This document shows, piece after piece, positions 16,197 to 39,212 of a DNA stretch of 64,000 nucleotides; the stretch's first letter is position 1, and the number at the start of each line of letters is the position of its first letter. The position numbers and the translations under genes are program-made. Source of the stretch: an uncultured Pseudomonadales bacterium (GTDB lineage: Bacteria > Pseudomonadota > Gammaproteobacteria > Pseudomonadales > Azotimanducaceae); assembly GCA_958296165.1 (NCBI GenBank), contig OY282447.1:124001-188000 (forward strand), written 5' to 3'. Under the pieces are notes generated by a model. That model worked only from the letters and a program-made list of their open reading frames with translations. It ran no database searches and was not told the origin of the DNA.

Positions 16197-18773
16197 ATGC
16201 GCACACGAACAGCAGGCATCCTGCCCGTCTTCCTGCTGGCCGCGGCATTCGCGGGCGGCGAAACACAGACGGTACCGCTGTTCGCTCCGGCGGACGACGG
16301 CGTCCGGCAGGGATTCACGCGGGTCGTGAATCTCTCAAACCGCAGCGGCAGGGTCTCCGTCCGCGCCTACGACGACGCCGGCGTCCTGCGCCGTACTTCA
16401 TTCCGCATCGCCGCATCCGCGGTGCATCACTTCAACTCAGACGACCTGGAGAACGGCAGCGCCGCCAAAGGCATCGCCGGCATCGGCAACGGCGCAGGCA
16501 ACTGGCGTCTCCTGTTGGACAGCGATCTGGCAATCACGGCGACCGCGTACCTGCGCACCGACGACGGCTTTCTCACCGCGATGAACAACACGGTGGAACG
16601 GGGGCCTGACTCGATTTACCGGGTCATGACCTTCAATCCCGCCTCGAACGTGAACCAGAGGAGCATGCTCCGGCTGATCAATCAGTCAGGAGAAGCGACC
16701 ACGGTGACCGTACGGGGCATTGACGATCGCGGCGTACAGGGAGACCGTCCCGTGACCGTCACGCTGCGCCCGAACGGCGCACGCACCCTGACCTCGAATG
16801 AACTGGAGGCCATGGGACTCGGCAACGGCAGCGGTAAGTGGCGATTACTTGTCACGGCACCGGAGATGCTCACCGTCATGTCCCTCATGAGCACCAGGGT
16901 CGGCTACCTGACCAACCTCTCCTCGGCACCGGAAGGTACCGGCGTCTCGCTGTTCACCGCCGCCACGGCGGGCAGACAGAGTTTCGTGCGGATTATCAAC
17001 CGGTCAGCGGAAGCGGGCACCGTGACGGTACACGCCACGGACGACTCGGGGACGGTGCGGGGCTACTTCACCATCCCTATCGGCGCCAATCAGGTGCAGT
17101 ACTTCAACTCGGACGACCTGGAGAACGGCAATGCCGGCAAAGGCATCGCCGGGGTCGGCGACGGCACCGGTCACTGGCGGCTGACGGTCTCCAGCGATCT
17201 GGACATACAGGCACTCACCTACATGCGTACCACGGACGGCTTTCTCACCGCGCTCCACGATATCGTGGACGCTCCGGGACGAAAGCACCAGGTACCCATA
17301 TTCAACCCGGGCAGCAACGCCGACCGGGAGAGCAGCCTGCGAATCGTCAACGCCACGGATGCCGTGACCACGGTCACCATCCGCGGCTACGACGACCGCA
17401 ATGCCGAAGGCGACCGTACGGTACGCGTCACCCTGCGGGGCAACGAGGCGAAGACCTTCACCGCCAGACAGCTGGAGGACATGGGACTCGGGGACGGCAG
17501 CGGCAAGTGGCGCCTGCTCGTTACGGCGAGCAATCCCGTCATGCTGATGTCTCTGATGAGCACCGCGACCGGTCACCTGACCAACCTCTCCTACACGCCG
17601 GACGGCGCCCGGGTCATCATTGAACCCGTAACGGCATCGTTCACCTACGAGGAGGACGACGGCATTCCGTTCGGCATTCGCTTTGACGCCACCGCGTCCA
17701 ACGGCGACATCGTCGACTACGCCTGGGACTTCGGGGAGGACAGTCAGTTTGTATCGAACACTTCAGGCACCGGTCCGACCCCCCTGTTCGTCTACGACGG
17801 CAGAGGATTCTTCAGAGACACCCGCGGCGGCGAACACGGCTACGAAGGCTACTACCCCGCCACGGCAACCTACACGGTCACCCTGACCGTCACGGATCGC
17901 CATGGCGTGGAAGACACACTCACCGAAGAGATTGAAGTGACCAACACGCTTGCCTTCACCGGTGCCCGCGCGCTCATTGACCGTATCACCGACGATGATG
18001 AACACCGCGGCACGCTGATTATCTCAGAGTTAGGTGTCGGTAAGGCATTCGAAGGCAGTCACGCGCAGACAGTGGTATATGTGAGCATGAAGGAAGAGGG
18101 CATACCGACGGAGCGTATCCATGTGGAGGGTCCGGGGATAACGGATCCGTTAGCACTCGGTCCGTTCGCCCTTCTGACCCACCCTGACAACGCCGCCCTG
18201 CGCGCCGAGACACTGGTGATGAATCGGTCGGGGTTTCCCGCTTTCGGCGGCGGATACGGCGAGGACATCGCCGCGAATAACATTGTGTTCGTGGGGAGTA
18301 CTTCCAATGTTGCTTCTGACTTTGAAAATGCTTGCGATCCGCCGGGTATGCCTGACCGGGATCTCTGGCACCCCGATCACTCACTGTGGAGCAATGCCTG
18401 TGACGGCGGACAGTGGCGAGATTGGTATGACGGCATGCGGGAAGTGATCGCGACCGGCAAAGTGCTGTACGCGACCGCTGCAATCCGCAAGCAGGACGGT
18501 TCCATTGAACCGAATCTTGATGTCTTCAAATGCGGTGACACCATGGAATACTGCTTTGCGGTTACCCACGCATTTGCCACTTCCACCGCAACGGCAAAAC
18601 TCAGTGCGGCGGTGTTCCACCTCTTCCAACTCTATGACGACGCGGAGGATGTGGTGCGCGCCCTGAAGAGCTGCACGGAAGATATCGGGGAGCCCGGTGT
18701 TGACCGTGAATTCGGTCAGGGGCTCGTTGACTTTCGCTGTACGGAAGCGATGCTGCCGGTTGTTGATCGGTAG
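16197..18773 (+). CDS. Array copy 1: secreted A-B-A-B module / PKD / subtilase-like protein (intact)
   Basis: 858 residues, not a family I recognise. Residues 1-21 are a signal peptide. Four modules follow: A types (about 26-142 and 250-367) carry FNSDDLENG and a C-terminal YLRTDDGFLTAM-like block. B types (about 143-249 and 368-474) begin FNPxSN and end WRLLVTA ... TGHLTNLS. A PKD-like domain (DATASNGDIVDYAWDFGED) spans about 475-586. The C-terminal 270 residues resemble the last half of a subtilase: VFVGS around the oxyanion strand, a CGDTMEYC pair, ATSTATAKLSAAV in place of GTSxAxP, and the terminal EPGVDREFGQGLVDF. The catalytic Asp is not evident, so it is probably inactive or divergent. 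AAGGAGG is 11 bases from the ATG. Copy 1 is the most diverged in its C-terminal part. Confidence 0.8.
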   Translation: MRTRTAGILPVFLLAAAFAGGETQTVPLFAPADDGVRQGFTRVVNLSNRSGRVSVRAYDDAGVLRRTSFRIAASAVHHFNSDDLENGSAAKGIAGIGNGAGNWRLLLDSDLAITATAYLRTDDGFLTAMNNTVERGPDSIYRVMTFNPASNVNQRSMLRLINQSGEATTVTVRGIDDRGVQGDRPVTVTLRPNGARTLTSNELEAMGLGNGSGKWRLLVTAPEMLTVMSLMSTRVGYLTNLSSAPEGTGVSLFTAATAGRQSFVRIINRSAEAGTVTVHATDDSGTVRGYFTIPIGANQVQYFNSDDLENGNAGKGIAGVGDGTGHWRLTVSSDLDIQALTYMRTTDGFLTALHDIVDAPGRKHQVPIFNPGSNADRESSLRIVNATDAVTTVTIRGYDDRNAEGDRTVRVTLRGNEAKTFTARQLEDMGLGDGSGKWRLLVTASNPVMLMSLMSTATGHLTNLSYTPDGARVIIEPVTASFTYEEDDGIPFGIRFDATASNGDIVDYAWDFGEDSQFVSNTSGTGPTPLFVYDGRGFFRDTRGGEHGYEGYYPATATYTVTLTVTDRHGVEDTLTEEIEVTNTLAFTGARALIDRITDDDEHRGTLIISELGVGKAFEGSHAQTVVYVSMKEEGIPTERIHVEGPGITDPLALGPFALLTHPDNAALRAETLVMNRSGFPAFGGGYGEDIAANNIVFVGSTSNVASDFENACDPPGMPDRDLWHPDHSLWSNACDGGQWRDWYDGMREVIATGKVLYATAAIRKQDGSIEPNLDVFKCGDTMEYCFAVTHAFATSTATAKLSAAVFHLFQLYDDAEDVVRALKSCTEDIGEPGVDREFGQGLVDFRCTEAMLPVVDR

Positions 18774-18915: not shown

Positions 18916-19482
18916 TTAGTCCGGCAACGGGCGCGAAGGCAACATCGTGCCGAGCTCGCGCGCCGGCACGATGCGGACGTCCTGAACTACCGCTGGCGTA
19001 AGAACGCTGCGGAGATCGTCCATCAACTCGGCGCGGACGTGGTCGAACCCTCTGGCATCGTCATGGTCCATGTCGCCGCTGAACGCCAACCAGAAATCCG
19101 CCGTTCCAGACACCGCGGCGGCTTCGTCTTGGTCCGCCAACTCCCGACCGAGCCGACACAGCACGAGCAGCGACCCATACGCCTTGAGGCGGTTCTCGCG
19201 CTTCAAGCTCCTCAGAAGATGTCGGTTCCGCTCGCCGTCCTGCAGATGCGCGAGCGTCCTTAGGATGTCCTCGATCTGGGCGGCCAGTCTGGTCTCTTCG
19301 ATCAGCACAACCGTTCCGCCGCTGAAAGTGAAGTAGTCGCAGCAATTGCATGTCCCCAGGCCCGCTCTGGCGCGCATGTTGGATTGCGGCGATGTTCCGT
19401 CCATGCGATACGCAAGCAGCGCGGGGTTCACCGGCTCGCCGCCAGCGCGAACCTCCTCCAGGAACTCCGCCAGCCTGGTCAT
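18916..19482 (-). CDS. Unknown partner protein of the OLD-like ATPase
   Basis: 188 residues, unrecognised. A short Cys cluster, GTCNCCDYF near residue 43, is followed by FSGGTVVLIEETRLAAQIEDIL and then a charged helical region. No HNH, TOPRIM or PLD motif is visible. It starts one base after the stop of the upstream ATPase, so they form a two-gene transcription unit. The layout resembles ATPase-effector defence pairs, but the effector activity cannot be named from the sequence. Confidence 0.65.
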   Translation of the reverse strand: MTRLAEFLEEVRAGGEPVNPALLAYRMDGTSPQSNMRARAGLGTCNCCDYFTFSGGTVVLIEETRLAAQIEDILRTLAHLQDGERNRHLLRSLKRENRLKAYGSLLVLCRLGRELADQDEAAAVSGTADFWLAFSGDMDHDDARGFDHVRAELMDDLRSVLTPAVVQDVRIVPARELGTMLPSRPLPD

Positions 19483-19483
19483 C

Positions 19484-20893
19484 TCACATGCCGCGCAGAT
19501 AGAGATCGAAAAAGGGCTTCGTCAAGTCCCGCTTCATCCGCGCAAGTTGAACCATCAAGTCATCTTCGTCGCAGCGGGGATCGGGGAAACGGTTGAGGGC
19601 GACGAGCCGCGCGTCGTTCGGATGCTCCTTCAGATGCACCTCCAGCCACTTGAGGATATCGGCGCTGTGAGTCGCAACCACCACCTTGACGCCCTCTCCG
19701 GCCAGTCGGAACAGCGCGTCTGCCATGACGGTCTGCCACGCAGTGTGGAGATGCGCCTCCGGCTCGTCGATGAACAGCATCGTGCCGCGGTCGATGACCT
19801 TGCGCTCGACGAGCATGGCGAGCATGCCGATGTTCGCGACTCCGGTCGCCGCCGTGGACAAGGGATGGCTGCGCCCCGCCTCTTCGAAAGACATCTCGCC
19901 GAACTCCGACACGGAGACCTTGCCGCCGATGACGTCGTCGACAAGCCAGCGGTGAATCTCCGGGTAGGCCATCTCGCCGGTGTACTCGTAGGTCAGGCTC
20001 TCGACGAGGTCGTAGAAGTAGTCGGGCACGCCCGTCAACGCGGTTCCGCGAGCGCGGCCAAGAGAAGCGCCGAAGCGCCTGACATCTCGGAGCGGCGTGA
20101 AGATCTTCCAGTAGATCGGAGACTCCAAGTACACGACATTGGGCGTGTCCGACAGCTTGCCGAACGCGGACGAATAGAGCCCCAGCCGGAGCTTGTTTTC
20201 CGAGCCGTCGATGTCGAGGAGGTCGTCGATGTGTACTTGCAGGTTCCGGTTCGGATCGCTGCGGAGGTCCTGGACCTTGGGCACCTGGAAGTTCCCCAAC
20301 AGGTTCCGCCTCAGGCGATGCTTGAGCTCGTCCTCGATGAACGCCCGGGAATCTTCAACCTGCTTCAACTCGTGCGACAAGCGATCTATAGATTGCAGGA
20401 GACGCGAGAGTTCCCTCTCGTGCAGTCTCCTTCGCGAGCCGTGTGCGGTGGCGGCAAGGGCGTCGTCTTCGGCGCTCTCGCTCGCCTGCGTGGTTTCGGG
20501 CAACGCGCGCTTCAGCTCGGTGGCTTGTTCAAGCAGGATCGAAGCGACTTGATCGAGGGCCGCAATGTCGCCTTTCCTGTACGCCAAGGCAACATCCTCC
20601 ATGTCGGAGACGATTCGCCGCAGTCGTGCAACCAGAGCGCCGTCTACCGAGACGAGGCGCCTCGAGTCGAATCGGAGCGACGACACCAGCCGGAAGACCC
20701 GCTCCTGTTCAAGATCGGCGTTCAGCGCGTTGAAGATGGAGTACAGCAACTTGGAAACGAAACTCTTGCCCGTGTTGTTGGGGCCCGCCAGAACGGTGAA
20801 GTTGCCAACGCGGATGTCGGCCCGCGACAGCTTGCCGAAGTTGCGGATGCGGAGCCGGTGATGGACTTGGCTTGTTGTCCGCTTCGAGCTCAT
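19484..20893 (-). CDS. OLD/AAA-type ATPase (AAA_21/AAA_15-like)
   Basis: 469 residues from ATG 20893. The N-terminus LRIRNFGKLSRADIRVGNFTVL leads into Walker A GPNNTGKS (about 35-42). A long helical and coiled-coil insert (about 120-240) follows. Near the end are a signature-like LSTAATGVANIGML (about 340), Walker B MLFIDEPEAHLH (about 368) and the H-loop VVVATHSADIL (about 400). The order is that of SMC/ABC-like DNA-associated ATPases such as OLD nucleases and PtuA. The TOPRIM domain of OLD is absent, so the effector is presumably the next gene. Longer in-frame extensions upstream have no support. Confidence 0.8.
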   Translation of the reverse strand: MSSKRTTSQVHHRLRIRNFGKLSRADIRVGNFTVLAGPNNTGKSFVSKLLYSIFNALNADLEQERVFRLVSSLRFDSRRLVSVDGALVARLRRIVSDMEDVALAYRKGDIAALDQVASILLEQATELKRALPETTQASESAEDDALAATAHGSRRRLHERELSRLLQSIDRLSHELKQVEDSRAFIEDELKHRLRRNLLGNFQVPKVQDLRSDPNRNLQVHIDDLLDIDGSENKLRLGLYSSAFGKLSDTPNVVYLESPIYWKIFTPLRDVRRFGASLGRARGTALTGVPDYFYDLVESLTYEYTGEMAYPEIHRWLVDDVIGGKVSVSEFGEMSFEEAGRSHPLSTAATGVANIGMLAMLVERKVIDRGTMLFIDEPEAHLHTAWQTVMADALFRLAGEGVKVVVATHSADILKWLEVHLKEHPNDARLVALNRFPDPRCDEDDLMVQLARMKRDLTKPFFDLYLRGM

Positions 20894-21169
20894 CAGCTGC
20901 CACCTGCTTGTGTGCATTGGCCGGAAAATACGCTGCGGACTCGGGGCGCTCCACGTGCGTCGCGTTGGCGCAGCGGCAGCCCAAGCGGCGCTTGAACGGC
21001 GTCTTGACGGCCCTGCCCGCATCTCCGGGCGTGTTCGCAGGCTCCTGGCCTGTGCGGTTCGCAACGGAGTGTACACCGCGGTAACGCTGGAACGGCGCTT
21101 CGGTATCATGAGCGGCTCTCGAAGAAGCCGGCGGCGGAGCCCCGGCCGGGAGGATTGGGAGGACTTTCC
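20894..21169. other. Intergenic region before the ATPase and the copy remnant
   Basis: About 275 bases between the minus-strand ATPase and the plus-strand signal-peptide remnant. It must hold the ATPase promoter. No class A or B leader sequence is recognisable upstream of the remnant, unlike the full copies. Confidence 0.4.
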
Positions 21170-21253
21170 ATGCGTACACGAACGGCAGGCATCCTGCCCG
21201 TCCTCCTGCTGGCCGCGGCACTCGCGGGCGGCGAAACGCAGACGGTACCGTGA
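21170..21253 (+). pseudogene. Remnant of a sixth array copy: signal peptide only
   Basis: 28 codons encode the same signal peptide as the large copies (MRTRTAGILPV ... AALAGGETQTVP) and then stop at TGA 21251-21253. A GGGAGG-type ribosome site precedes it. Sequence homology ends at the position corresponding to residue 27, so the rest of the copy was deleted or replaced by the unrelated gene that follows. Confidence 0.75.
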
Positions 21254-21289
21254 ACTAACGCAAGCCCAAAAGGCGAGGATTGACGAACT

Positions 21290-21862
21290 ATGACGCGATC
21301 GACCGCTGCTGACGCCAATGCGACCGAGCACTGCATCGGTGTTGCCGATCTTCAGCGTTACCTTGCCGGACTAGCAGACCTCCAGCGCGACAGCAGAACG
21401 GGCAACGCTGCCCTGGCCGCGGCCATTCGTTCCTTGGTGGATGCTCTGAAACCGTATCGATCTCGACCAGCGCTGGAACTGCCCGAGCTGCTTGCTGGCT
21501 TGGTCGCTCCTAGACAGCCGAAGCCGACGCAAAGGAAACCACCTGTCGAGTTGCCTTCCGATCTGACGACCCTGACCGAGGCGGCCGTCGAGCGCATGCT
21601 TGCTGACAACCGCTACTTAAAGAGTCAACTCGCCGATCTAGGCTTCCAGCGGTTCGGAATATCCCGCAGCAGGCTATGTCGATTGCCAAAGGCAGAAGCG
21701 GTGGAAGCTATTCGAGCCGCTCTTGAGCATCAGCGCTCGCTCGACGCAATTAGTCAACAAGCGCAAGCAGCTGGCAGGAGACGATCCGAGGGGTACGCTG
21801 AAGACACGCCGCCTAGCACGCGCAGCCCATTCAGACATACTCCTCCAGCGACAGTACCGTAA
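21290..21862 (+). CDS. Unknown helical cargo protein
   Basis: 190 residues, unrecognised. Predicted mostly helical, with a Pro-rich linker near residue 75 and a compact helical block (RMLADNRYLKSQLADLGFQR) near 105. No signal peptide or membrane segment is seen. It begins 36 bases after the truncated signal peptide and could be transcribed from whatever remains of that copy's promoter. Coding status is moderately supported by length and composition only. Confidence 0.5.
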   Translation: MTRSTAADANATEHCIGVADLQRYLAGLADLQRDSRTGNAALAAAIRSLVDALKPYRSRPALELPELLAGLVAPRQPKPTQRKPPVELPSDLTTLTEAAVERMLADNRYLKSQLADLGFQRFGISRSRLCRLPKAEAVEAIRAALEHQRSLDAISQQAQAAGRRRSEGYAEDTPPSTRSPFRHTPPATVP

Positions 21863-21889: not shown

Positions 21890-22045
21890 CGCGGCGGCTG
21901 AGTGGCCCCAATCGCTCTAAGCTGCCGAGACACTGCGCAGGCGGCCTCCACCTTGCTCCCCACGCCGTGCGCCAGCGCGCTTCGAGCACCTCGCGCGGTA
22001 AGTCCGTCTGCTCCGCGCGCCAGTCGCGGAAGCCGTTCGATGTCC
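21890..22045 (-). pseudogene. C-terminal remnant of a tyrosine recombinase (phage-type integrase)
   Basis: On the minus strand, one frame reads FRDWRAEQTDLPREVLEA and a shifted frame continues ALAHGVGSKVEAA. Together these are the familiar integrase C-terminal segment FRxWAxExTxYPREVxExALAHxVGxxVExAY. Only about 50 residues survive, with a frameshift between them. It abuts the class B leader of copy 2, marking a site of past integrative-element activity. Confidence 0.6.
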
Positions 22046-22182
22046 CACGTCCTTTGCGGACCCCGCCGAGCGGCAGGTGTTGCGCGGACCCGGGCGCCCT
22101 GCGCGACACGCTTTCCGCTGGCCTACAATCGTCGTAACAGCCGCCCGGCGCAGAACAAGAACCCAAGGAGGCGAGCCGACCC
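22038..22182 (+). promoter_or_regulatory. Class B leader of array copy 2
   Basis: The block from about 22047 (GTCCTTTGCGGA ... GCGCGACACGCTTTCCGCT) recurs before copies 4 and 5. TACAAT at 22124-22129 is a candidate -10 box and AAGGAGG precedes the ATG. The distal part differs from the class A leader of copies 1 and 3. Confidence 0.5.
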
Positions 22183-24756
22183 ATGCACACACGAACGGCA
22201 GGCATCCTGCCTGTTTTCCTGCTGGCCGCGGCATTCGCGGGCGGCGAAACGCAGACGCTGCCGCTGTTCGCTCCGGCGGACGACGGCGTCCGGCAGGGAT
22301 TCGCGCGGGTCGTGAACCTCTCGAACCGCAGCGGCACGGTCTCCGTCCGCGCCTACGACGATGCCGGCGTCCTGCGCCGGACTTCGTTCCGCATCGCCGC
22401 ATCCGCGGTGCATCACTTCAACTCGGACGACCTGGAGAACGGCAGCACCGCCAAAGGCATCGCCGGCATCGGCAACGGCGCCGGCAACTGGCGTCTCCTG
22501 CTGGACAGCGATCTGGCAATCACGGCTGCCGCGTACCTGCGCACCGATGACGGCTTTCTCACCGCGATGAACGCAACGGTGGACAGGGGGCCGGACGGGG
22601 TCCACCGGGTCATGACCTTCAATCCCGCCTCGAACGCGGACCGGGAGAGCATGCTCCGGCTTGCCAACCTGTCGGATCGGGCGGCGACGGCGACCGTGCG
22701 GGGCGTCGACGACGGCGGCGCGCCGGGGGACCGTCCCGTGACGGTCGCGCTCCGCCCGAACGGCGCCGCCACCCTGACCGCGAAGGAACTGGAGGACGGC
22801 GGGCTCGGCGACGGCAGCGGCAAGTGGCGCCTGCTCGTCACGGCGCCGGAGGCGATCGCCGTCATGTCCCTCATGAGCACCGGAACCGGCCACCTGACCA
22901 ACCTCTCCTCGGCGCCGGAAGGCACCGCCGTCCCGCTGTTCACCGCCGCCACGGCGGGCAGACAGAGTTTCGTGCGGATCGTCAACCGGTCGGCGGAAGC
23001 GGGAACCGTGGTGGCATACGCCACGGACGACTCGGGCGCCCGATACCATGGCTACGAGCCGGCGTTCACCCTCCCCGTCGGCGCCAATCAGGCGCTGCAC
23101 TTCAACTCCGACGACCTGGAGAACGGCAACGCGGCAAAAGGCATCGCCGGGGTCGGCGACGGCGACGGCCACTGGCGGCTGCGCTTCTCCAGCAACAGGG
23201 ACATACAGGTGCTCGCCTACATGCGCACGGAGGACGGCTTTCTCACCGCGCTGCACGACGTGGTGGGCTATCCGGGACGGGAGCACCAGGTGCCCATGCT
23301 CAACCCGGGCAGCAACGCCGACCGGGAGAGCAGCCTGCGGATCGTCAACGCCACGGGTGCGACCTCGGTGACCATCCGCGGCTACGACGACCGCAATGCC
23401 GAAGGCGACCGCGCGGTGCGCATCGCCCTGCGGAGCAACGAGGCGAAGACCTTCACCGCCAGACAGCTGGAGGACATGGGACTCGGCGACGGCAGCGGCA
23501 AATGGCGGCTGCTCGTCACGGCGAGCAATCCCGTCACGCTGATGTCGCTCATGAGCACGAGGACCGGCCACCTGACCAACCTCTCCTACACGCCGGACGG
23601 CGCCCGCGTCATCGCCAAACCCGTGACGGCGTCGTTCAGCTACGAGGAGGACGACGGCATTCCGTTCGGCATCCGCTTCGACGCCACCGCGTCCAACGGC
23701 GACATCGTCGACTACGCCTGGGACTTCGGGGAGGACAGCCGGTGGGTTGACGCCACGACCGGCACCGGTCCGACCCCCCTGTTCGTCTACGACAGTGTCT
23801 GGTTCTTCGGGGGTACCCGGGGCGCTCACCTCGGCTACGAGGGCCGCTACCCCGCCACGACGACCTACCCGGTCACCCTGACCGTTACCGACCGCTCCGG
23901 CGCGACCGCCACGCATGCCAAGCAGATCGTCGTGACCAACACCCTGTCCTTCGCCGGCATGCGCGACCTCATCGGCCGCATCGCCGACGGCGGCGGGCAC
24001 CGCGGGAAACTCATCATCTCGGAGTTGGATGCCGGCGAGGCGTTCGAGGGCAGCCACGCCCAGCAGACGGTGTACGTGAGCATGAAAGAGGAGGGGGTGC
24101 CCGCGGCAAACATCCATGTGCATGGTCCGGGGATCACGAACCAGCGCGTGCTCGGTCCGCACGGCATCCTGACCCACCCGGACAACGCCGCCCTGCGCGC
24201 CGAGACCCTGGTGGTGAACCGGTCGGTACGACCCGCCTTCAATGCGCTTGCTGTGCAGCCCATCGCCGCGCACAACATCATATTTGTGGCGAGTGCCGGC
24301 AACCTTGATCCCGACATCGTGGCGTGCGGTCCGACTGACCCGCGCATCCGTGATTTCTGGCGGTCTGACCATCCGTACTTCTCCTGTGGTGGCGGTCGCG
24401 GTAGCACCTATGCCAACACCATGGCCGCGGTCAGAACCGGCAAGGTGCTGATGGCGACCGCGGCGGTGCGCGAACAGGACGGCACGGTCGTGCCGAATAC
24501 CGGTGTCCTGATGTGCGGCGACACCAGGGAGCAGTGCTTCGCGGTGGAGCAGTCGGGGATTACCTCGGCATCGGCGGCAGCACTCAGTGCGGCGGTGTTC
24601 CACCTCTTCCAGACCTATGAGGATGCGGATGATGTGGTGCACGCGCTGACGTCGTGCGCAACGGATATCGGGGAGCCCGGTGTTGACCGTGAGTTCGGTC
24701 AGGGACTCGTTGACTTCCGCTGTACGGAAGCGATGATGCCGGTTGTTGATCGGTGA
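22183..24756 (+). CDS. Array copy 2: secreted A-B-A-B module / PKD / subtilase-like protein (intact)
   Basis: 857 residues with the layout of copy 1: signal peptide 1-21, modules A1 26-142, B1 143-249, A2 250-367, B2 368-474, PKD-like 475-586, C-terminal domain 588-857. In the C-terminal domain FEGSHAQQTV (a possible His), IIFVASAGN near 700 (subtilase oxyanion-type Asn), CGDTREQC, and ITSASAAALSAAV near 793 (Ser region) are followed by EPGVDREFGQGLVDF. No transmembrane anchor or autotransporter barrel is present, so the product should be secreted or periplasmic. The C-terminal half is nearly identical to copies 3 and 4, and the N-terminal half to copies 4 and 5. Confidence 0.8.
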   Translation: MHTRTAGILPVFLLAAAFAGGETQTLPLFAPADDGVRQGFARVVNLSNRSGTVSVRAYDDAGVLRRTSFRIAASAVHHFNSDDLENGSTAKGIAGIGNGAGNWRLLLDSDLAITAAAYLRTDDGFLTAMNATVDRGPDGVHRVMTFNPASNADRESMLRLANLSDRAATATVRGVDDGGAPGDRPVTVALRPNGAATLTAKELEDGGLGDGSGKWRLLVTAPEAIAVMSLMSTGTGHLTNLSSAPEGTAVPLFTAATAGRQSFVRIVNRSAEAGTVVAYATDDSGARYHGYEPAFTLPVGANQALHFNSDDLENGNAAKGIAGVGDGDGHWRLRFSSNRDIQVLAYMRTEDGFLTALHDVVGYPGREHQVPMLNPGSNADRESSLRIVNATGATSVTIRGYDDRNAEGDRAVRIALRSNEAKTFTARQLEDMGLGDGSGKWRLLVTASNPVTLMSLMSTRTGHLTNLSYTPDGARVIAKPVTASFSYEEDDGIPFGIRFDATASNGDIVDYAWDFGEDSRWVDATTGTGPTPLFVYDSVWFFGGTRGAHLGYEGRYPATTTYPVTLTVTDRSGATATHAKQIVVTNTLSFAGMRDLIGRIADGGGHRGKLIISELDAGEAFEGSHAQQTVYVSMKEEGVPAANIHVHGPGITNQRVLGPHGILTHPDNAALRAETLVVNRSVRPAFNALAVQPIAAHNIIFVASAGNLDPDIVACGPTDPRIRDFWRSDHPYFSCGGGRGSTYANTMAAVRTGKVLMATAAVREQDGTVVPNTGVLMCGDTREQCFAVEQSGITSASAAALSAAVFHLFQTYEDADDVVHALTSCATDIGEPGVDREFGQGLVDFRCTEAMMPVVDR

Positions 24757-24872
24757 TCGTTCTTCTCCGCCCGCGGCGCCGGCACCAACCACCTGGGCGC
24801 TCGCTTCCGCCCTGCCAGCAACACCTGCCTAGTTGGTGCGACAGCCGAAAGAGACCGGCAACCATCAACAAA

Positions 24873-26835: not shown

Positions 26836-26837
26836 AC

Positions 26838-29943: not shown

Positions 29944-30513
29944 ATGAATTTGGTTCTTGTGGCGAGCGCAATCGTGCTCTCGTCTATGGTCGTTGTGACC
30001 GCGGTTTCCGTTTGGCTGGCCTGGGAATACAGCTTCCTTCGTGTTACGAACGTGGGAAACGACAACAAGGATGCGATCAGGCATTTCCTAGCTGTGCTTG
30101 GCCAAGCGGAGCATGAGTTGCTGGTACACGACGATGGCGACGATACTGAGGGCACGCTATATGAGGACGAAGACACGGTGCAGGCCGTGCGCGAGCGCTT
30201 GCGGACATGTCCCGACTTGAAGATACGCTGTCTGTTGAATTTCAAAACTAATGTCCGCATGGCGGGCCTAAGCGAGGAATACGGCAGTAGGTTCCAAGTG
30301 CGGTACCTCCATCAACGGCCCGCCGAGGATATCCACTTCAAGATCGCCGATGGCGGGAAGATGGCGTATTTGTCCATCCACGCGAAAGGCGTCACCGAAC
30401 GGCAGGGCCAAGTCATTGAAGACATGGGTGCCCGCGCGTATGTGCGGAAACACCGTCTAGGCGGCTTGATCGAAGACTTCAACGATGGTTTCAGCAGGGC
30501 CCAATCAGCGTGA
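29944..30513 (+). CDS. Membrane-anchored PLD-like protein (paralogue 1)
   Basis: 189 residues. A single N-terminal transmembrane helix (about 3-26) is followed by a cytoplasmic-size domain. VHDDGDDTEGTLYEDE near 60 is followed by LKIRCLLN near 97 and HFKIADGGKMAYLSIH near 137, which has the H-x-K-x2-D shape of a phospholipase D HKD motif. PLD-like enzymes need two HKD halves, so a dimer would be expected. Its stop overlaps the next gene (ATGA). The same two-gene unit occurs, diverged and inverted, at 35251-36176. Confidence 0.7.
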   Translation: MNLVLVASAIVLSSMVVVTAVSVWLAWEYSFLRVTNVGNDNKDAIRHFLAVLGQAEHELLVHDDGDDTEGTLYEDEDTVQAVRERLRTCPDLKIRCLLNFKTNVRMAGLSEEYGSRFQVRYLHQRPAEDIHFKIADGGKMAYLSIHAKGVTERQGQVIEDMGARAYVRKHRLGGLIEDFNDGFSRAQSA

Positions 30514-30842
30514 CGCTATTGCCCGATTTGCTCCCCCCGATGCAGCACTACGCACTGTTTGCTGCCGCACTGGCCTTGTTTTCGTTGTCGATCACGCAGA
30601 ACAAGAGGCGACTTAGCGTTTGGGTGTGGCTCGTGATGTTGGTGCTGCCAGTCGCCCAAATAGCATGGTCGTTGTGGGAAACAGTACGAGAGGCCGACTC
30701 CAATTGGCTGATTGCCCAAGCACTAGTTCATGGCGGGGCGATTGTGTTTGTCTCGGCAATAGTGCTGATTGTAGCGAGTCAGTCCGGCAGCACGCTGCAA
30801 AAGCGAGTGAGGCTCGAGCCGACTGTTGGGCCGACTTCGTAA
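30510..30842 (+). CDS. Small three-helix membrane protein paired with PLD-like protein 1
   Basis: 110 residues with about three hydrophobic segments (13-29, 37-52, 72-91) and short charged loops. Its ATG overlaps the PLD-like stop by four bases, so the products are made together. Near its start it shares PPMQxY with its counterpart at 35251-35586. No known family was recognised; an inner-membrane partner of the PLD-like protein is the likely role. Confidence 0.65.
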   Translation: MTLLPDLLPPMQHYALFAAALALFSLSITQNKRRLSVWVWLVMLVLPVAQIAWSLWETVREADSNWLIAQALVHGGAIVFVSAIVLIVASQSGSTLQKRVRLEPTVGPTS

Positions 30843-33116: not shown

Positions 33117-34238
33117 TCAGGCAGGGGCTGGAAGCAGGTCGGAGGTGCCGTGCGGCGGTTGGGCGCCCGCGGAGTCGGGGCGGGCTGGCGGCTGGCCCTT
33201 CGGGCCTTGGCTGCAGTCGCCGAGGCTCCCTTCGCCAAGACCCGAAGGGCCGCCGGCTTCCTCGGCCGCCTCCGCGGGCGGAGCGGCGGCCGGCTCGTCG
33301 CCCGCTCGCGGCGTCCAGAGCCGGTTCTGGCGGAGCAGCGCGTTGGCCAGCAGCAGGAGCTTGCGCATGACGGCGACCAGCGCCACCTTCGGCGGCTTGC
33401 CGCGGCCGATCAGGTCGCGGTACTTGCGGCCGAGATCGGGGTTGTGCCGGACGGCGGCGACGGCCGCCATGTAGAGCAGGCGGCGCACGCGCGCGCGACC
33501 GCCCTGGATGAAGCGCTTGCCCTGCCACTGGCCGGATTCGCGCGCCACCGGCGCAAGGCCGGCCAGACTGGCCGCCGCCTTGGCGTCGAGGCCGCCCAGT
33601 TCCGGCATCGCCGCCAGCAGCCCGGCCGCCGTGGCCTTCCCGATGCCCGGAATGGAGGCCAGCGTCTCGGCGCGGCGCGACAGCCCTTCGTCGCCAGCCA
33701 GCGTCCGCGCGATCGCCGCTTCGACGGCCCGGAGCTGCCGGTCGATCTGCTCCAGCCGCCGCCGGCACTGCTGCCCGAGCAGCGCCACGCGCAGGCCCTT
33801 GCGGCGGTTCAGCGCCGCCACCCGGTCCCGCGCCAGCGCCTCGCGCGCAACCGTCAGGTCGCCCAGGTCGCGCAGCGCCCTGCCCGGCGGCTCCGTCGGC
33901 CGCAGATCCAGCGCCGCGCCCATCCGCGCCAGAACCGCGGCGTCCGCCGCGTCCGTCTTCGCGTTGCGCCCCATCGACTGCGCGAAGCGCCGCGCCCGCA
34001 GCGGGTTCGCCCGCGCCAGCGGCAGACCCGCCTCGGCGAGCGCCTCCTCGAAGTCCCTGTGGTAGCGCCCGGTGGCCTCGTAGACCACGCAGTCCGCCGC
34101 GCCGATCCAGACCGCCAGCTCCTTGAACCCGGCCGCGTCGTTGCCGAACTGCGCCGCCTCGCCGGTGCGCAGCCGGTGCGCGTCCAGGCGCGACTTCGAG
34201 ATGTCCACGCCGACCGTGTTGGCTGTATCCTGCTTCAT
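33117..34238 (-). CDS. IS110-family transposase (DEDD recombinase)
   Basis: 373 residues from ATG 34238 with GGAGGAAGGAAG upstream. The N-terminal RuvC-like DEDD domain shows GVDISK (Asp), VVYEATGRYH (Glu) and KTDAADAAVLA (Asp-Asp). The C-terminal transposase_20 domain has SIPGIGKATAAGLLA near 215 and AGLAPVARESGQWQGKR near 250 with the expected Ser. The C-terminal Pro/Gly/Ala-rich tail after about 325 is longer than typical. The frame is open well upstream of the ATG, but that part lies in the interrupted gene. Confidence 0.88.
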   Translation of the reverse strand: MKQDTANTVGVDISKSRLDAHRLRTGEAAQFGNDAAGFKELAVWIGAADCVVYEATGRYHRDFEEALAEAGLPLARANPLRARRFAQSMGRNAKTDAADAAVLARMGAALDLRPTEPPGRALRDLGDLTVAREALARDRVAALNRRKGLRVALLGQQCRRRLEQIDRQLRAVEAAIARTLAGDEGLSRRAETLASIPGIGKATAAGLLAAMPELGGLDAKAAASLAGLAPVARESGQWQGKRFIQGGRARVRRLLYMAAVAAVRHNPDLGRKYRDLIGRGKPPKVALVAVMRKLLLLANALLRQNRLWTPRAGDEPAAAPPAEAAEEAGGPSGLGEGSLGDCSQGPKGQPPARPDSAGAQPPHGTSDLLPAPA

Positions 34239-34249
34239 CTTCCTTCCTC

Positions 34250-34425
34250 CCGTGCTTGTCTTGCGAGCCACGATGCTCATGTATCCGTTCGGGACGCAGA
34301 GGGAAGACGGCGGCCGACCAAACTCACTTGCGGCCGAGCATGGAACGGTCCGACCACCGCCTGCCCTGCGGCGCTTCAAAAGGGCGCCGCAGGGTGGGAC
34401 CCTCCCGAAGGCCCACGGGGAATCT
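34250..34425 (-). ncRNA. Predicted IS110 bridge RNA (left-end non-coding segment)
   Basis: Read on the minus strand, the segment starts with an 11-bp perfect stem (34384-34394 with 34364-34374). It then has CATGCTC (34336-34342) matching the left target plus core, and GTGAG (34323-34327) complementary to the right target. A later loop has ACGGATA (34282-34288), equal to the element's right-end donor TATCCGT on +, and AAGACAAG (34255-34262), the complement of its left-end donor. The order LTG, RTG, LDG, RDG and the CT core are those described for IS621. Exact ends are uncertain. Confidence 0.6.
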
Positions 34426-35250
34426 AAACAGACAAGCATGAAAGAGGAGGGGGTGCCCGCGGCAAACATCCATGTGCATGGTCCGGGGATCACGAACCAG
34501 CGCGTGCTCGGTCCGCACGGCATCCTGACCCACCCGGACAACGCCGCCCTGCGCGCCGAGACCCTGGTGGTGAACCGGTCGGTACGACCCGCCTTCAATG
34601 CGCTTGCTGTGCAGCCCATCGCCGCGCACAACATCATATTTGTGGCGAGTGCCGGCAACCTTGATCCCGACATCGTGGCGTGCGGTCCGACTGACCCGCG
34701 CATCCGTGATTTCTGGCGGTCTGACCATCCGTACTTCTCCTGTGGTGGCGGTCGCGGTAGCACCTATGCCAACACCATGGCCGCGGTCAGAACCGGCAGG
34801 GTGCTGATGGCGACCGCGGCGGTGCGCGAACAGGACGGCACGGTCGTGCCGAATACCGGTGTCCTGATGTGCGGCGACACCAGGGAGCAGTGCTTCGCGG
34901 TGGAGCAGTCGGAGGTCACCTCGGCATCGGCAGCAGCACTCAGCGCGGCGGTGTTCCACCTCTTCCAGACCTATGAGGATGCGGATGATGTGGTACACGC
35001 CCTGAAGAGCTGCACGGAAGATATCGGGGAGCCCGGTGTTGACCGTGAATTCGGTCAGGGACTCGTTGACTTTCGTTGCACTGAAGCGATGCTGCCGGTT
35101 GTTGATCGGTGATCGTTCTTCTTTCGCCTGACAGGACGACTTGCGCCAAGGCAGCTTCGCCTTCGAAGCGCACACCTGGCGACCGTTCCGAGGCGTTCTC
35201 GAACGACCGCCGCAGCGCCCTTTCCGTCCACCGCAGCCGATATTGCCGTC

Positions 35251-35586
35251 CTATGGTGGGCTTGGCGGTTTGGGTATTCTCGTATGCTTCATCCGCAACG
35301 CGACCGTGATGACATACAGCGCAAGCACGGTGATTGCGTTAAGAGCCAAATAGACCACACGTGCCATGTCATCGGCATGCAAGTAGGCGGTGACAAGCGA
35401 ACACCCCACGACTGACACGACGGGCAACGCAGTCACAATCGAGAGCGCTACGCCCCAAGAGCCGCTTGCCGGCCCCCTTCCGACGATGGCTCCGAAAATC
35501 GCCACTGCAAGAGCACACGTTATATACATCTGCATTGGCGGGAAAATGACAGATAGATGCGTCGCCGACCAATCGCCAATGTTCAC
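35251..35586 (-). CDS. Small membrane protein paired with PLD-like protein 2
   Basis: From a GTG at 35586 that overlaps the upstream stop as GTGA, the product has 111 residues, matching its 110-residue counterpart at 30510-30842. About three hydrophobic segments are visible (20-36, 45-65, 76-97), and PPMQMY near residue 17 is the shared element. The frame extends further upstream, but the coupled start is preferred. Its family is unrecognised. Confidence 0.6.
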   Translation of the reverse strand: MNIGDWSATHLSVIFPPMQMYITCALAVAIFGAIVGRGPASGSWGVALSIVTALPVVSVVGCSLVTAYLHADDMARVVYLALNAITVLALYVITVALRMKHTRIPKPPSPP

Positions 35587-36176
35587 GCGATCTGCGCCTC
35601 CGCGAATTCGCTGTCGAAGCGTCGAATATGGTCCCCGAACGCTCTTTCGCAAGCCTTCTTGGGCGCACTCTGGAACTCATATATCCAAATGTCCCTGTCC
35701 GTGCTTCCTTCATCATGTTCTGAGAAGTATCCCATGCGCTTGTCTGCGATCTTGTAGTGGACGTCGCCTACTGGTCTGCCGCGCCTTCGGTACCGAATTT
35801 GCAGCTGGTCGCGGCGTGTCTTCGCCAGATTTAGGATTTTCAACTGGACGCCAGGGTTGTTGAACAAGATACGCACTTTCAGTTCCGGCTTGTCTTTGAG
35901 CCTGCGCTCCAATGCTTCCAGCACGTGTTCGTTGTTGTAGATGGAACCTGGAACATCGTCGCCATCGTCGTGAACTACCATTCGTTCGTCGGCTTCTCCC
36001 AGCACGCGCATGAAGTATACGACGGCCTTTTCACCGCTGTTCCGATCTTCAATGATGTTCCCGCCACGGCTTAGACATTGCCAACAAGCATAGCCGGTCG
36101 TCACCAAGACGACTACGACGCTGACGATCCCCAACGCGATGACGACTATCGCACCGATGTGTTCTGCCATTTCCAA
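35583..36176 (-). CDS. Membrane-anchored PLD-like protein (paralogue 2)
   Basis: 197 residues with one N-terminal transmembrane helix (about 7-30). The soluble part parallels paralogue 1: VVHDDGDDVPGSIYNNEHVLEALERR near 67, LKVRILFN near 100, VHYKIADKRMGYFSEH near 139 (H-x-K-x2-D plus a following acidic/His stretch). Overall identity to paralogue 1 is low and concentrated in these blocks, so the duplication is old or the units arrived independently. It is transcribed opposite to the array copies. Confidence 0.7.
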   Translation of the reverse strand: MEMAEHIGAIVVIALGIVSVVVVLVTTGYACWQCLSRGGNIIEDRNSGEKAVVYFMRVLGEADERMVVHDDGDDVPGSIYNNEHVLEALERRLKDKPELKVRILFNNPGVQLKILNLAKTRRDQLQIRYRRRGRPVGDVHYKIADKRMGYFSEHDEGSTDRDIWIYEFQSAPKKACERAFGDHIRRFDSEFAEAQIA

Positions 36177-36488: not shown

Positions 36489-36635
36489 TCGATGTCCCAC
36501 GTCCTTTGCGGAGGCCGCCGAGCGGCAAGTGTTGCGCGGAGCCGGGCACCCTGCGCGACACGCTTTCCGCTGACCTACAATCGTCGTAAAGCCGCCCCGC
36601 GCAGAACAAGAGCCCGAAGGAGGCGAGCCGACCCA
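36489..36635 (+). promoter_or_regulatory. Class B leader of array copy 5
   Basis: Begins TCGATGTCCCACGTCC like copy 2 and continues with the shared class B block. TACAAT is at 36576-36581, and GAAGGAGG lies upstream of the ATG. Confidence 0.5.
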
Positions 36636-39212
36636 ATGCACACACGAACAGCAGGCATCCTGCCTGTTTTCCTGCTGACCGCGGCACTCGCGGGCGGCGA
36701 AACGCAGACGGTGCCGCTGTTCGCTCCGGCGGACGACGGCGTCCGGCAGGGATTCGCGCGGGTCGTGAACCTCTCGAACCGCAGCGGCACGGTCTCCGTC
36801 CGCGCCTACGACGATGCCGGCGTCCTGCGCCGGACTTCGTTCCGCATCGCCGCATCCGCGGTGCATCACTTCAACTCGGACGACCTGGAGAACGGCAGCA
36901 CCGCCAAAGGCATCGCCGGCATCGGCAACGGCACCGGCAACTGGCGTCTCCTGCTGGACAGCGATCTGGCAATCACGGCTGCCGCGTACCTGCGCACCGA
37001 CGACGGCTTTCTCACCGCGATGAACGCAACGGTGGACAGGGGGCCGGACGGGGTCCACCGGGTCATGACCTTCAATCCCGCCTCGAACGCGGACCGGGAG
37101 AGCATGCTCCGGCTGGCCAACCTGTCGGATCGGGCGGCGACGGCGACCGTGCGGGGCGTCGACGACGGCGGCGCGCCGGGGGACCGTCCCGTGACGGTCG
37201 CGCTCCGCCCGAACGGCGCCGCCACCCTGACCGCGAAGGAACTGGAGGACGGCGGGCTCGGCGACGGCAGCGGCAAGTGGCGCCTGCTCGTCACGGCGCC
37301 GGAGACGATCGCCGTCATGTCCCTCATGAGCACCGGAACCGGCCACCTGACCAACCTCTCCTCGGCGCCGGAAGGCACCGCCGTCCCGCTGTTCACCGCC
37401 GCCACGGCGGGCAGACAGAGTTTCGTGCGGATCGTCAACCGGTCGGCGGAAGCGGGAACCGTGGTGGCATACGCCACGGACGACTCGGGCGCCCGATACC
37501 ATGGCTACGAGCCGGCGTTCACCCTCCCCGTCGGCGCCAATCAGGCGCTGCACTTCAACTCCGACGACCTGGAGAACGGCAACGCCGACAAGGGCATCGA
37601 GGGCGTCGGCAGCGGCGCCGGCCACTGGCGGCTGCGCTTCTCCAGCAACAGGGACATCCAGGTTCTCGCCTACATGCGCACCGAGGACGGCTTTCTCACC
37701 GCGCTGCACGACGTGGTGGGCTATCCGGGACGGGAGCACCAGGTGCCCATGCTCAACCCGGGCAGCAACGCCGACCGGGAGAGCAGCCTGCGGATCGTCA
37801 ACGCCACGGATGCCGCGACCTCAATCACCATCCGCGGCTACGACGACCGCAATGCCGAAGGCGACCGTACGGTACGCGTCACCCTGCGGGGCAACGAGGC
37901 GAAGACCTTCACCGCCAGACAGCTGGAGGACATGGGACTCGGCGACGGCAGCGGCAAATGGCGGCTGCTCGTCACGGCGAGCAATCCCGTCACGCTGATG
38001 TCGCTCATGAGCACGAAGACCGGTCACCTGACCAACCTCTCCTACACGCCGGACGGCACCCGGGTCATCATCAAACCCGTGACGGCATCGTTCAGCTACG
38101 AGGAGGACGACGGCATCCCGTTCGGCATTCGCTTTGACGCCACCGCGTCCAACGGCGACATCGTCGACTACGCCTGGGACTTCGGGGAGGACAGCCGGTG
38201 GGTTGACGCCACGACCGGCACCGGTCCGACCCCCCTGTTTGTCTACGACAGTACCTGGTTCTTCGCGAACACCCGGGGCGCTCACCTCGGCTACGAGGGC
38301 CGCTACCCCGCCACGGCGACCTACCCGGTCACCCTGACCGTTACCGACCGCTCCGGCGCCACAGACACCCACGCCAAGCAGATCGTCGTGACCAACACCC
38401 TGTCCTTCGCCGGCATGCGCGACCTCATCGGCCGCATCGCCGCCGGCGGCGGGCACCGTGGGAAACTCATCATCTCGGAATTGGGTATCGGCGAGGCGTT
38501 TGAGGGCAGCCATGCCCAGCGGACGGTGTATGTGAGCATGAAAGAGGAGGGCGTGCCGGCGGCGAGTATCGTAGTGCACGGTCCGGGGATCACGAACCGG
38601 CGCGCGTTCGGTTCGCTCGGCATCCTGACCCACCCGGACAACGCCGCCCTGCGCGCCGAGACCCTGGTGGTGAACCGGTCGGTACTGCCCGCCTTCAGTA
38701 GGCTTGAGGTGGAGCCCATCTCCGCGCACAACATCATATTTGTGGCGAGTGCGGGCAACCTTAATCCCGACATCGCGGCGTGCGGTCCGACCGACCCGCG
38801 CATCCGTGATTTCTGGCGGTCCGACCATCCGTACTTCTCCTGTGAGGGGGATCGCAGTCCGATCTATACCGACACCATGGGCGCAGTCAGGACCGGCAAG
38901 GCGCTGATGGCGACCGCGGCGGTCCGCAGGCAGGACGGCACGGTCGTGCCGAATACCGGTGTCCTGATGTGCGGCGACACCAGGGAGCAGTGCTTCGCGG
39001 TGGAGCAGTCGGAGGTCACCTCGGCATCGGCGCCGGCACTCAGCGCGGCGGTGTTCCACCTCTTCCAGACCTACGAGGATGCGGATGATGTGGTGCGCGC
39101 GCTGAAGTCGTGCGCGACGGATATCGGGGAGCCCGGAGTTGACCGTGAATTCGGCCAGGGACTCGTCGACTTCCGCTGCACGGAAGCGATGATGCCGGTT
39201 GTTGAGCGCTAG
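36636..39212 (+). CDS. Array copy 5: secreted A-B-A-B module / PKD / subtilase-like protein (intact)
   Basis: 858 residues with the same layout as copy 2. The modules and PKD-like domain are nearly identical to copy 4 (shared NADKGIEGVGSGAGHW). The C-terminal domain is a distinct variant: ELGIGEAFEGSHAQRTV, FVASAGNLNPDI, CGDTREQC, VTSASAPALSAAV, EPGVDREFGQGLVDF. Because the C-terminal domain varies while the repeats are homogenised, it may be the specificity part. The downstream flank resembles that of copy 1. Coding from the ATG at 36636 is supported by GAAGGAGG. Confidence 0.8.
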   Translation: MHTRTAGILPVFLLTAALAGGETQTVPLFAPADDGVRQGFARVVNLSNRSGTVSVRAYDDAGVLRRTSFRIAASAVHHFNSDDLENGSTAKGIAGIGNGTGNWRLLLDSDLAITAAAYLRTDDGFLTAMNATVDRGPDGVHRVMTFNPASNADRESMLRLANLSDRAATATVRGVDDGGAPGDRPVTVALRPNGAATLTAKELEDGGLGDGSGKWRLLVTAPETIAVMSLMSTGTGHLTNLSSAPEGTAVPLFTAATAGRQSFVRIVNRSAEAGTVVAYATDDSGARYHGYEPAFTLPVGANQALHFNSDDLENGNADKGIEGVGSGAGHWRLRFSSNRDIQVLAYMRTEDGFLTALHDVVGYPGREHQVPMLNPGSNADRESSLRIVNATDAATSITIRGYDDRNAEGDRTVRVTLRGNEAKTFTARQLEDMGLGDGSGKWRLLVTASNPVTLMSLMSTKTGHLTNLSYTPDGTRVIIKPVTASFSYEEDDGIPFGIRFDATASNGDIVDYAWDFGEDSRWVDATTGTGPTPLFVYDSTWFFANTRGAHLGYEGRYPATATYPVTLTVTDRSGATDTHAKQIVVTNTLSFAGMRDLIGRIAAGGGHRGKLIISELGIGEAFEGSHAQRTVYVSMKEEGVPAASIVVHGPGITNRRAFGSLGILTHPDNAALRAETLVVNRSVLPAFSRLEVEPISAHNIIFVASAGNLNPDIAACGPTDPRIRDFWRSDHPYFSCEGDRSPIYTDTMGAVRTGKALMATAAVRRQDGTVVPNTGVLMCGDTREQCFAVEQSEVTSASAPALSAAVFHLFQTYEDADDVVRALKSCATDIGEPGVDREFGQGLVDFRCTEAMMPVVER

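What the first reader, a model, noticed from the sequence alone, without database searches (positions are those of the whole stretch)
16197..39212. Array of five long direct copies of an undescribed secreted protein, with variable cargo between copies
Seen: five about 2.57-kb genes on the same strand, one remnant, and different small gene units in each gap (ATPase plus partner; helical protein; low-GC PIN-like protein; PLD-like plus membrane protein, twice). Known: long direct repeats promote unequal crossover and gene conversion. Inference: an expandable locus in which secreted repeat proteins serve as homology arms for cargo exchange, and/or encode a polymorphic surface or secreted system whose neighbours are immunity or defence functions.
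Basis: partly seen in the sequence, partly recalled or inferred. Interest (0 to 1): 0.85.

Follow-up and report, generated by a model that had tools for sequence, protein, structure and literature searches.

The report
Recombining secreted-protease array with mobile cargo
A bacterium carries a row of repeated genes for a secreted, protease-like protein; related genomes show that such rows recombine, gain and lose the small defence and other genes lying between the copies, and sit at different places, and near-identical copies of the gene also occur in a tiny, very distantly related bacterium from a sponge.

Summary
The array is real: five direct copies in a single-contig genome. The protein is a signal peptide, ASRT-like beta-sandwiches (probably four), a PKD domain and a divergent subtilase-fold domain. 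Copies recombine: gene halves are mosaic (0 of 500 permutations), and subtilase alleles are exchanged independently of N-parts, between species too. Two related genomes show cargo turnover: their arrays are collinear at ~94% nucleotide identity, but one lacks exactly two cargo+copy units; one array has an empty orthologous site in the other genome; one cargo+copy unit stands alone elsewhere. Gaps hold Septu, RES-Xre, AbiEii, Panacea-like, HicA or OLD-like genes, or PLD-like/membrane pairs. In a congener two loci lie between a tyrosine integrase and a Mob relaxase, so the gene is probably cargo of integrative mobilizable elements. A Patescibacterium from a sponge metagenome carries three copies 96.9-98.4% nucleotide-identical to that congener's. 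Best reading: a mobile-element-derived array whose long repeats drive cargo turnover and domain shuffling. Protein function and any selected purpose remain inferred.

The parts
16197..18773 (+). Copy 1, intact 858 aa; N-part allele alpha, subtilase allele A
18916..19482 (-). Cargo gap 1: 188-aa partner, no family hit
19484..21331 (-). Cargo gap 1: OLD/AAA_15-AAA_21 ATPase; the longest ORF is 615 aa, the coding-score start gives 469 aa at 20893
   Evidence: PADLOC HEC-02A 2.3e-28
21168..21250 (+). 83-bp remnant of the 5' end of another copy (overlaps the longest form of the ATPase ORF)
21978..22049 (-). Remnant of a tyrosine-integrase C-terminus, overlapping the 5' edge of the copy 2 unit
   Evidence: 24 aa, 67% identity, E 3e-5 to 6e-4
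22037..24766 (+). Copy 2 unit: ~146-bp 5' flank + intact CDS 22183-24756 (857 aa) + ~10 bp; N allele beta, subtilase allele B
24873..26105 (-). Cargo gap 2: low-GC ORF, 410 aa, no family hit
26507..27052 (+). Cargo gap 2: DDE transposase remnant (sub-threshold)
27269..29834 (+). Copy 3, frameshifted; N allele alpha (as copy 1), subtilase part as copy 2
29944..30513 (+). Cargo gap 3: PLD-like (DUF7931, sub-threshold), 189 aa; an 86% identical gene follows two copies in G037
30510..30842 (+). Cargo gap 3: 110-aa membrane protein
   Evidence: membrane nature from my reading
31138..33036 (+). Copy 4, first part; N allele beta (as copy 5)
33036..34434 (-). IS110 insert in copy 4 (transposase ORF ends at 33117)
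34414..35112 (+).
35251..35586 (-). Cargo gap 4: small membrane protein
   Evidence: membrane nature from my reading
35583..36176 (-). Cargo gap 4: PLD-like protein, 35% identical to gap 3's, inverted
36489..39291 (+). Copy 5 unit: 5' flank + intact CDS 36636-39212 (858 aa) + ~80 bp shared with copy 1

Best explanation
The gene is, most likely, originally a cargo gene of integrative mobilizable elements (IMEs). It encodes a secreted protein with probably four ASRT-like domains of a sugar-binding type, a PKD domain and a subtilase-fold domain. Repeated insertion and duplication built a tandem array. The 2.6-kb direct copies then act as homology for unequal crossover and conversion. This (a) deletes, duplicates and reassorts the accessory modules between copies (defence, toxin-antitoxin, PLD-like/membrane genes), and (b) shuffles N-part and subtilase-domain alleles. 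Arrays and single copy+cargo units move to new sites, and the coding sequence has reached a Patescibacterium. SHOWN: mosaic copies; a copy/cargo difference of exactly two units between two relatives; an empty orthologous site; non-syntenic locations; integrase + Mob relaxase + primase-type genes beside two loci in a congener; near-identical copies in a Patescibacterium record. INFERRED: which of the two relatives is ancestral, IME ancestry of the window's own array (only an integrase remnant is left), direction of the transfer to the Patescibacterium, a surface glycan-directed function, and any selection for cargo exchange itself.
For: Five copies with shared ends. Mosaicism: the dominant split changes from c1,c3|c2,c4,c5 to c1,c5|c2,c3,c4 around alignment position 1600-1800; PHI-type statistic 0.14 against a permuted mean of 0.40, 0 of 500 permutations as low. 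G037 copy b1 has an N-part 99% identical to its sister a1 but a subtilase domain 90% identical to window copy 5 and 81% to a1. G101 v G076: three collinear blocks at 93.6-94.5% nt; G101 lacks exactly gap 2, copy 3, gap 3 and copy 4 of G076. G101's boundary copy is nearer copy 2 at its 5' end and nearer copy 4 in parts of its 3' half. The missing Panacea+copy 4 unit is found alone at another G101 locus, 96% nt over 3.7 kb. Both flanks of the G076 array are adjacent in G101, ~75 bp apart. G037a: tRNA-Asp/Val, integrase, restriction genes, three copies, Mob_Pre, VapE; G037c: integrase, one copy, Mob_Pre, PriCT_2 primase. Patescibacterium OY282360: three copies, GC3 0.73-0.79 against 0.48 for nearby genes, 16S rRNA gene on one of its two loci.
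Against: The window itself shows no intact integrase or relaxase like those of G037, and no att site was identified; the integrase remnant is 24 aa and on the opposite strand to the copies. The hairpin-like repeat that brackets G037 modules has 0 matches in G000, and 3 of its 7 matches in G037 are away from the copies. The G037b, G076, G101 and G062 loci showed no integrase/relaxase by tblastn with the G037 proteins, apart from weak hits. No relative was found in viral contigs, plasmids or phages. One G076/G101 flank stretch is as similar (95-96%) as the arrays, though others are 77-87%. The chimera signal in G101 is uneven from window to window. Defence enrichment rests on few gaps, and one of ten window flank proteins outside the array also has a strong PADLOC match (PDC-S27, 172 bits).
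Confidence: 0.6

Rival explanations
1. Ordinary local duplication of a secreted-protein gene inside an accessory-gene hotspot; recombination between copies is a by-product and the defence genes are bystanders common to any such hotspot.
For: Most features (mosaics, deletions, decay of copies 3 and 4, IS insertions) follow from long repeats alone. 17 of 21 matches to the PLD-like cargo gene lie away from copies. Defence genes cluster in hotspots generally (abstracts in the listing).
Against: Arrays recur at sites that are not syntenic where I could compare them (G076 v G101; no shared flank proteins between the window and the G037 loci), and a cargo+copy unit is found as such at a separate locus, which plain duplication in place does not give.
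Confidence: 0.3
2. A recognition- or surface-variation system: recombination among copies exists to diversify the subtilase domain, with the array as an archive of alleles; cargo is incidental.
For: Differences concentrate in the subtilase domain, above all residues 641-740: dN/dS there is 0.52 (G076) and 0.43 (G037-low + Patescibacterium) against 0.13 and 0.10 in the N-terminal part. Subtilase alleles are swapped against N-parts and shared between species. One Patescibacterium copy lacks its 5' end and signal peptide, like a silent copy.
Against: Window copies keep their own 5' flank and start, so there is no single expression site; dN/dS of the subtilase segments stays below 1; in the window and G037-high sets the N-part is not clearly more constrained (0.42 and 0.61 against 0.56 and 0.58).
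Confidence: 0.2
3. A polymorphic antagonism system in which each copy is an effector and its neighbour the immunity gene.
For: Secreted, variable C-terminal half; small genes next to copies; a relative of epibiotic bacteria (recalled) carries it.
Against: Neighbours are known defence/TA/restriction families or occur away from copies; copies with nearly identical subtilase parts (2, 3 and 4) have different neighbours.
Confidence: 0.05
4. Assembly artefact of repeats.
For: Long repeats; frameshifts in some copies; raw reads not available.
Against: Single 5.07-Mb contig; each copy has distinct sequence and its gap DNA differs (gap 1 cargo found once in the genome); equivalent arrays in two other assemblies that differ by 6%.
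Confidence: 0.03

Closest known systems
Integrative mobilizable elements with defence cargo (tyrosine integrase + Mob relaxase + primase)
   Same: In congener G037, two loci have integrase, Mob_Pre and VapE/PriCT_2-type genes around the copies, one next to tRNA-Asp with restriction genes as cargo.
   Different: In the window the copies themselves are the repeated units and no intact integrase or relaxase of this kind was seen; att repeats were not identified.
Defence islands and core-gene hotspots (literature seen in the listing only)
   Same: Septu, RES-Xre, AbiEii, HicA, McrC and methylase genes accumulate in or beside variable gaps.
   Different: Gaps are separated by repeated copies of one secreted-protein gene, which supply the recombination homology.
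Recombining cassette arrays of surface antigens (vls, Vmp; listing)
   Same: Tandem homologous copies; segmental exchange creating mosaics.
   Different: Copies keep their own 5' flanks and lie between unrelated cargo genes; no single expression site found.
Subtilases (peptidase S8); top structural rows are a subtilase cytotoxin A subunit, PvSub1/PfSUB1 and subtilisin BPN'
   Different: Only 14.1 bits to Pfam S8 (cut-off 21.8); the triad Asp position reads Glu in the array proteins, by alignment only.
ASRT/ASRAH sugar-binding beta-sandwich superfamily (De Souza et al. 2009, PMC2739507; abstract and outline seen)
   Different: No Pfam ASRT hit in the array protein; several tandem repeats in one secreted protein.

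Membership tests
Peptidase S8 (subtilase) | Subtilisin-like alpha/beta fold | tested here: met
Peptidase S8 (subtilase) | Catalytic Ser and His, oxyanion Asn | tested here: met
   H41, N123 and T210-S211 of the model sequence invariant in 13 of 13 rows; assignment to the catalytic roles is by alignment and recall
Peptidase S8 (subtilase) | Catalytic Asp of the triad | tested here: inconclusive
   Array proteins read SEL/WEL where distant relatives L052/L053 read GDF/VDP, alignment uncertain by one residue; no atomic geometry examined
Peptidase S8 (subtilase) | Pfam gathering score | tested here: not met
   14.1 and 13.8 bits against 21.8
ASRT/ASRAH superfamily | ASRT-type beta-sandwich fold | tested here: met
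ASRT/ASRAH superfamily | Recognisable by sequence profile | tested here: inconclusive
   No hit for array copies at E 0.1; PF07100 at E 0.09 for the related LRR protein
Integrative mobilizable element | Tyrosine integrase next to the cargo | tested here: inconclusive
   G037a by Pfam, G037c by 58% identity; only a 24-aa remnant in the window
Integrative mobilizable element | Relaxase | tested here: inconclusive
   Mob_Pre 42.6 bits (cut-off 25.5) in G037a and a 44% identical gene in G037c; none in the window by tblastn
Integrative mobilizable element | att direct repeats at the ends | tested here: inconclusive
   No convincing second copy of the tRNA-Asp end in the 29 kb examined; direct repeats bracket modules in G037 but are not proven att sites
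Defence island | Clustered known defence/TA/RM genes | tested here: met
   8 of 14 gaps (2 shared by descent); 6 of 12 G076 gap proteins against 0 of 9 G076 flank proteins in Pfam. Against: 1 of 10 window flank proteins hits PADLOC PDC-S27 strongly
Silent-cassette antigenic variation | One expression site, promoterless archive copies | tested here: not met
   Window copies share 77-146 bp of 5' flank with start codons
Integron | IntI and attC sites | not tested
   No dedicated search was made

The most novel reading that the evidence does not exclude
A class of mobile locus in which one long secreted-protein gene is both the passenger and the recombination arm: each copy+cargo unit can be excised, duplicated or re-inserted by homology, so defence modules and surface-protein alleles are traded together within a community, across genera and into Patescibacteria.
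Probability: 0.25. Interest if true: 0.85.

Novelty: new variant of a known kind. Interest (0 to 1): 0.62.

Why it matters
It gives a concrete, comparable example of how long repeats turn defence and toxin-antitoxin genes over, visible as clean unit-sized differences between related genomes. The near-identical gene in a Patescibacterium from a sponge metagenome would be a very recent transfer between distant phyla and may point to a physical partner. In the sample, strong matches came from 4 of 6 single-contig genomes (the window's own included) and 0 of 94 others, so fragmented assemblies may hide such loci, unless the single-contig genomes simply share a habitat.

Tried and rejected
Five complete genes plus a remnant: rejected, copy 4 and the remnant are one IS110-split gene.

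Effector/immunity reading: neighbours are general defence or widely scattered genes. A phage or plasmid carrier: no match in viral contigs (362 pattern hits, 0 relatives), plasmids or phages; these searches used the C-domain only.

Simple empty site for the window array: its flank genes are conserved in the genus (the right-hand one not in G037), but were not seen next to each other in the ten stretches examined; several of those genomes are fragmented. RNA element: only the tRNA in the window at gathering score. att site at tRNA-Asp: not found. Hairpin-like repeat as attC: one of two stretches folds better than its shuffles (z -4.9; the other z -1.1), absent from G000; left open. A dispersed repeat at the G076 array edge turned out to be the remnant of a multi-copy ~1-kb insertion element.

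Full-length model: mean pLDDT 64.6, PKD region unmodelled; Foldseek hits for the whole chain were not meaningful. Literature: searches listed no description of this locus; seen as search listings, except passages of PMC12239599 and abstract/outline of PMC2739507.

Control for cargo: PADLOC at E 0.001 hit 1 of 10 window flank proteins (PDC-S27, E 4.8e-51) and 1 of 10 proteins around the G076 array (mad3, E 1e-27, which Pfam shows to be an ABC transporter); the latter ten include the AAA_16 protein inside the G076 insert. Pfam was run on 9 G076 flank proteins and 1 window flank protein only, later on one more window flank protein, an enoyl-CoA hydratase.
Full report
WHAT IS THERE. The window is G000:C1:124001-188000 of a 5.07-Mb single contig. 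Five direct copies lie at 16197-18773, 22183-24756, 27269-29834, 31138-35112 and 36636-39212. An 83-bp 5' remnant of a further copy lies at 21168-21250. Elsewhere in the genome there is one full-length relative (C1:1511344), a short C-terminal remnant (C1:3878255), and many loci that match only the N-terminal part.

RECOMBINATION. Pairwise identity along the window copies switches partners: copies 1 and 3 are 96-100% identical up to about alignment position 1400, 88-99% to 1700, then 56-78% (87% at the very end), while copies 2 and 3 go from 76-96% to 98-100%. Copy 4 is like copy 5 in its N-part and like copy 2 over most of its subtilase part. Over 259 informative sites the compatibility statistic was 0.14 against 0.40 permuted, with 0 of 500 permutations as low. 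In G037 the same holds: copy b1 matches its sister a1 at 99% in the N-part but window copy 5 at 90% in the subtilase part, against 81% to a1. Differences concentrate in the subtilase domain, most in residues 641-740. In the window and G037-high sets the N-part is not clearly more constrained by dN/dS, and the PKD segment of the three G037-high copies has a ratio of 4.2 on few changes (8 against 0.7), which I do not interpret.

RELATIVES. Of 100 genomes of the family, 6 matched the C-domain at E 0.001; strong matches were in 4 (G000 itself, G037, G062, G076), all among the 6 single-contig genomes. A scan of GTDB species genomes gave 12 loci, which add OY282455 (G101), OY282360 (a Patescibacterium) and two distant relatives. 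Sponge origin is documented only for OY282360; for the others it is a guess from neighbouring accession numbers.

CARGO TURNOVER. With both arrays turned the same way, G101 10551-14305, 14306-18260 and 18260-25622 align to G076 14143-17903, 17979-21944 and 30374-37746 at 93.6-94.5%. What is missing in G101 is gap 2 (AbiEii), copy 3, gap 3 (Panacea-like) and copy 4; whether G101 lost or G076 gained them is not settled. The G101 boundary copy is nearer G076 copy 2 at its start (98 against 95%) and nearer copy 4 in some later windows (94 against 82% at position 1680), with other windows undecided or contrary. The Panacea-like + copy 4 unit is found alone at another G101 place, 96.0% over 3685 bp. 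The two flanks of the G076 array lie ~75 bp apart in G101, an empty site; G076 has about 26 kb there, including an insertion-element remnant and an AAA_16 gene. Flank identities are 77-87%, but one flank stretch of the other locus reaches 95-96%, so the array's higher identity alone is not proof of transfer.

WHAT THE GAPS HOLD. Window: OLD-like ATPase + partner; low-GC ORF + transposase remnant; PLD-like + membrane pair; a second, inverted pair (PLD-like members 35% identical). G037a: the same PLD-like gene twice (100% to each other, 86% to the window's). G037b: HicA (39.9 bits, cut-off 27) and an esterase. G076: RES (60 bits) with Xre_MbcA_ParS (34.3), AbiEii (46.3), SocA_Panacea (21.4, below its cut-off 25.7), and PtuA/PtuB of Septu (484 and 256 bits) with a radical SAM/2OG cluster. 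G101 shares two gaps with G076 by alignment. The Patescibacterium gap (about 0.5 kb) held no called cargo gene on the copies' strand. Counting gaps between successive copies (window 4, G037a 2, G037b 1, G076 4, G101 2, Patescibacterium 1): 8 of 14 hold a defence, TA or restriction-type match, two of these by descent. Among G076 proteins scanned, 6 of 12 gap proteins against 0 of 9 flank proteins matched such families, leaving aside an ABC transporter that cross-hits PADLOC; in the window one of ten flank proteins hits a candidate PADLOC family strongly. The PLD-like gene occurs in 8 of 120 family genomes; 17 of 21 matches are away from copies.

MOBILITY GENES. In G037a a tyrosine integrase (56.5-88.6 bits) lies about 150 bp from tRNA-Asp, then an IS1595-like transposase (my reading), a methylase/HSDR_N protein, McrC (PF10117), the three copies, Mob_Pre (42.6 bits) and VapE (157 bits). 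G037c repeats the plan with one copy, an integrase 58% and a Mob protein 44-45% identical to those of G037a, and a PriCT_2 primase. The window retains only an integrase remnant at 21978-22049. A short repeat brackets the G037 modules in direct orientation; 4 of its 7 matches in G037 are at these module ends and none is in G000.

PATESCIBACTERIUM. OY282360 (724 kb) carries three copies. Its two full-length ones match G037 copies at 98.4% and 96.9% nt over the coding sequence, and the 5'-truncated one at 96.9%. Homology stops near the start and stop codons, and two copies share their own 5' and 3' flanks. Of its two loci, one has a 16S rRNA gene, the other topoisomerase I and threonyl-tRNA synthetase genes. 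PMC12239599 lists this record among 16S neighbours (84.02%) in its Patescibacteria tables, environment 'sponge metagenome' (passages). GC3 of the copies is 0.73-0.79 against 0.48 for nearby genes, and 0 of the 7 other family members searched have the C-domain. I therefore infer transfer into the Patescibacterium, but a mis-joined record is not fully excluded without reads.

VERDICT. Long-repeat recombination with cargo turnover is shown in relatives and, for gene mosaics, in the window. An IME origin is well supported in G037 and inferred for the window. Protein function is inferred.

Noticed in passing
window 58734-62045 (-): 1103-aa protein with leucine-rich repeats followed by the same kind of repeats as the N-part of the array proteins.
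   Followed up: partly
L126-L133 (other places in the window's genome): The N-part repeats occur in large proteins, some with LRR, M12B-type peptidase, GSDH or CBM60 domains; apparently a general secreted-protein module.
   Followed up: partly
window 33036-34434 and L039 ~8400-9260: IS110-type sequence inside copy 4 and again just upstream of the solo copy at C1:1511344, with a similar flank at one end; could test target choice by the bridge RNA.
   Followed up: no
L048, L050, L051 (G101): Copies in G101 carry different small lesions at the same spot between the N-part and the subtilase part; hotspot or coincidence.
   Followed up: no
L039:13276-14484, L041:14102-15331, L036:10071-11441: AAA_16-type ATPase genes lie within about 6 kb of three places with copies or a copy remnant.
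   Followed up: no
L046:11244-16616 and L042:14277-18347: Giant repeat-rich proteins of the Patescibacterium stand convergent to its copies and share 97.8% nt over 3.4 kb; no Pfam hit for the one scanned.
   Followed up: no
L126:10144-11313: Integrase 95% identical to that of G037c in the window's genome, ~15 kb from a C-terminal remnant of the array gene at C1:3878255.
   Followed up: no
window 4288-6360 (+): 690-aa low-GC UvrD-type helicase (115 bits), outside the array.
   Followed up: no
L036:14654-17253: Radical SAM, 2OG-Fe(II) oxygenase and an unassigned protein with an HExxH-like motif (my reading) in a G076 gap, possibly a peptide-modifying cluster.
   Followed up: no
window 48669-50087 (+): Strong PADLOC match to candidate defence family PDC-S27 (172 bits) outside the array.
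   Followed up: no
G037 copies a2, a3, c: PKD segment with 8 nonsynonymous against 0.7 synonymous differences on average; small sample.
   Followed up: no
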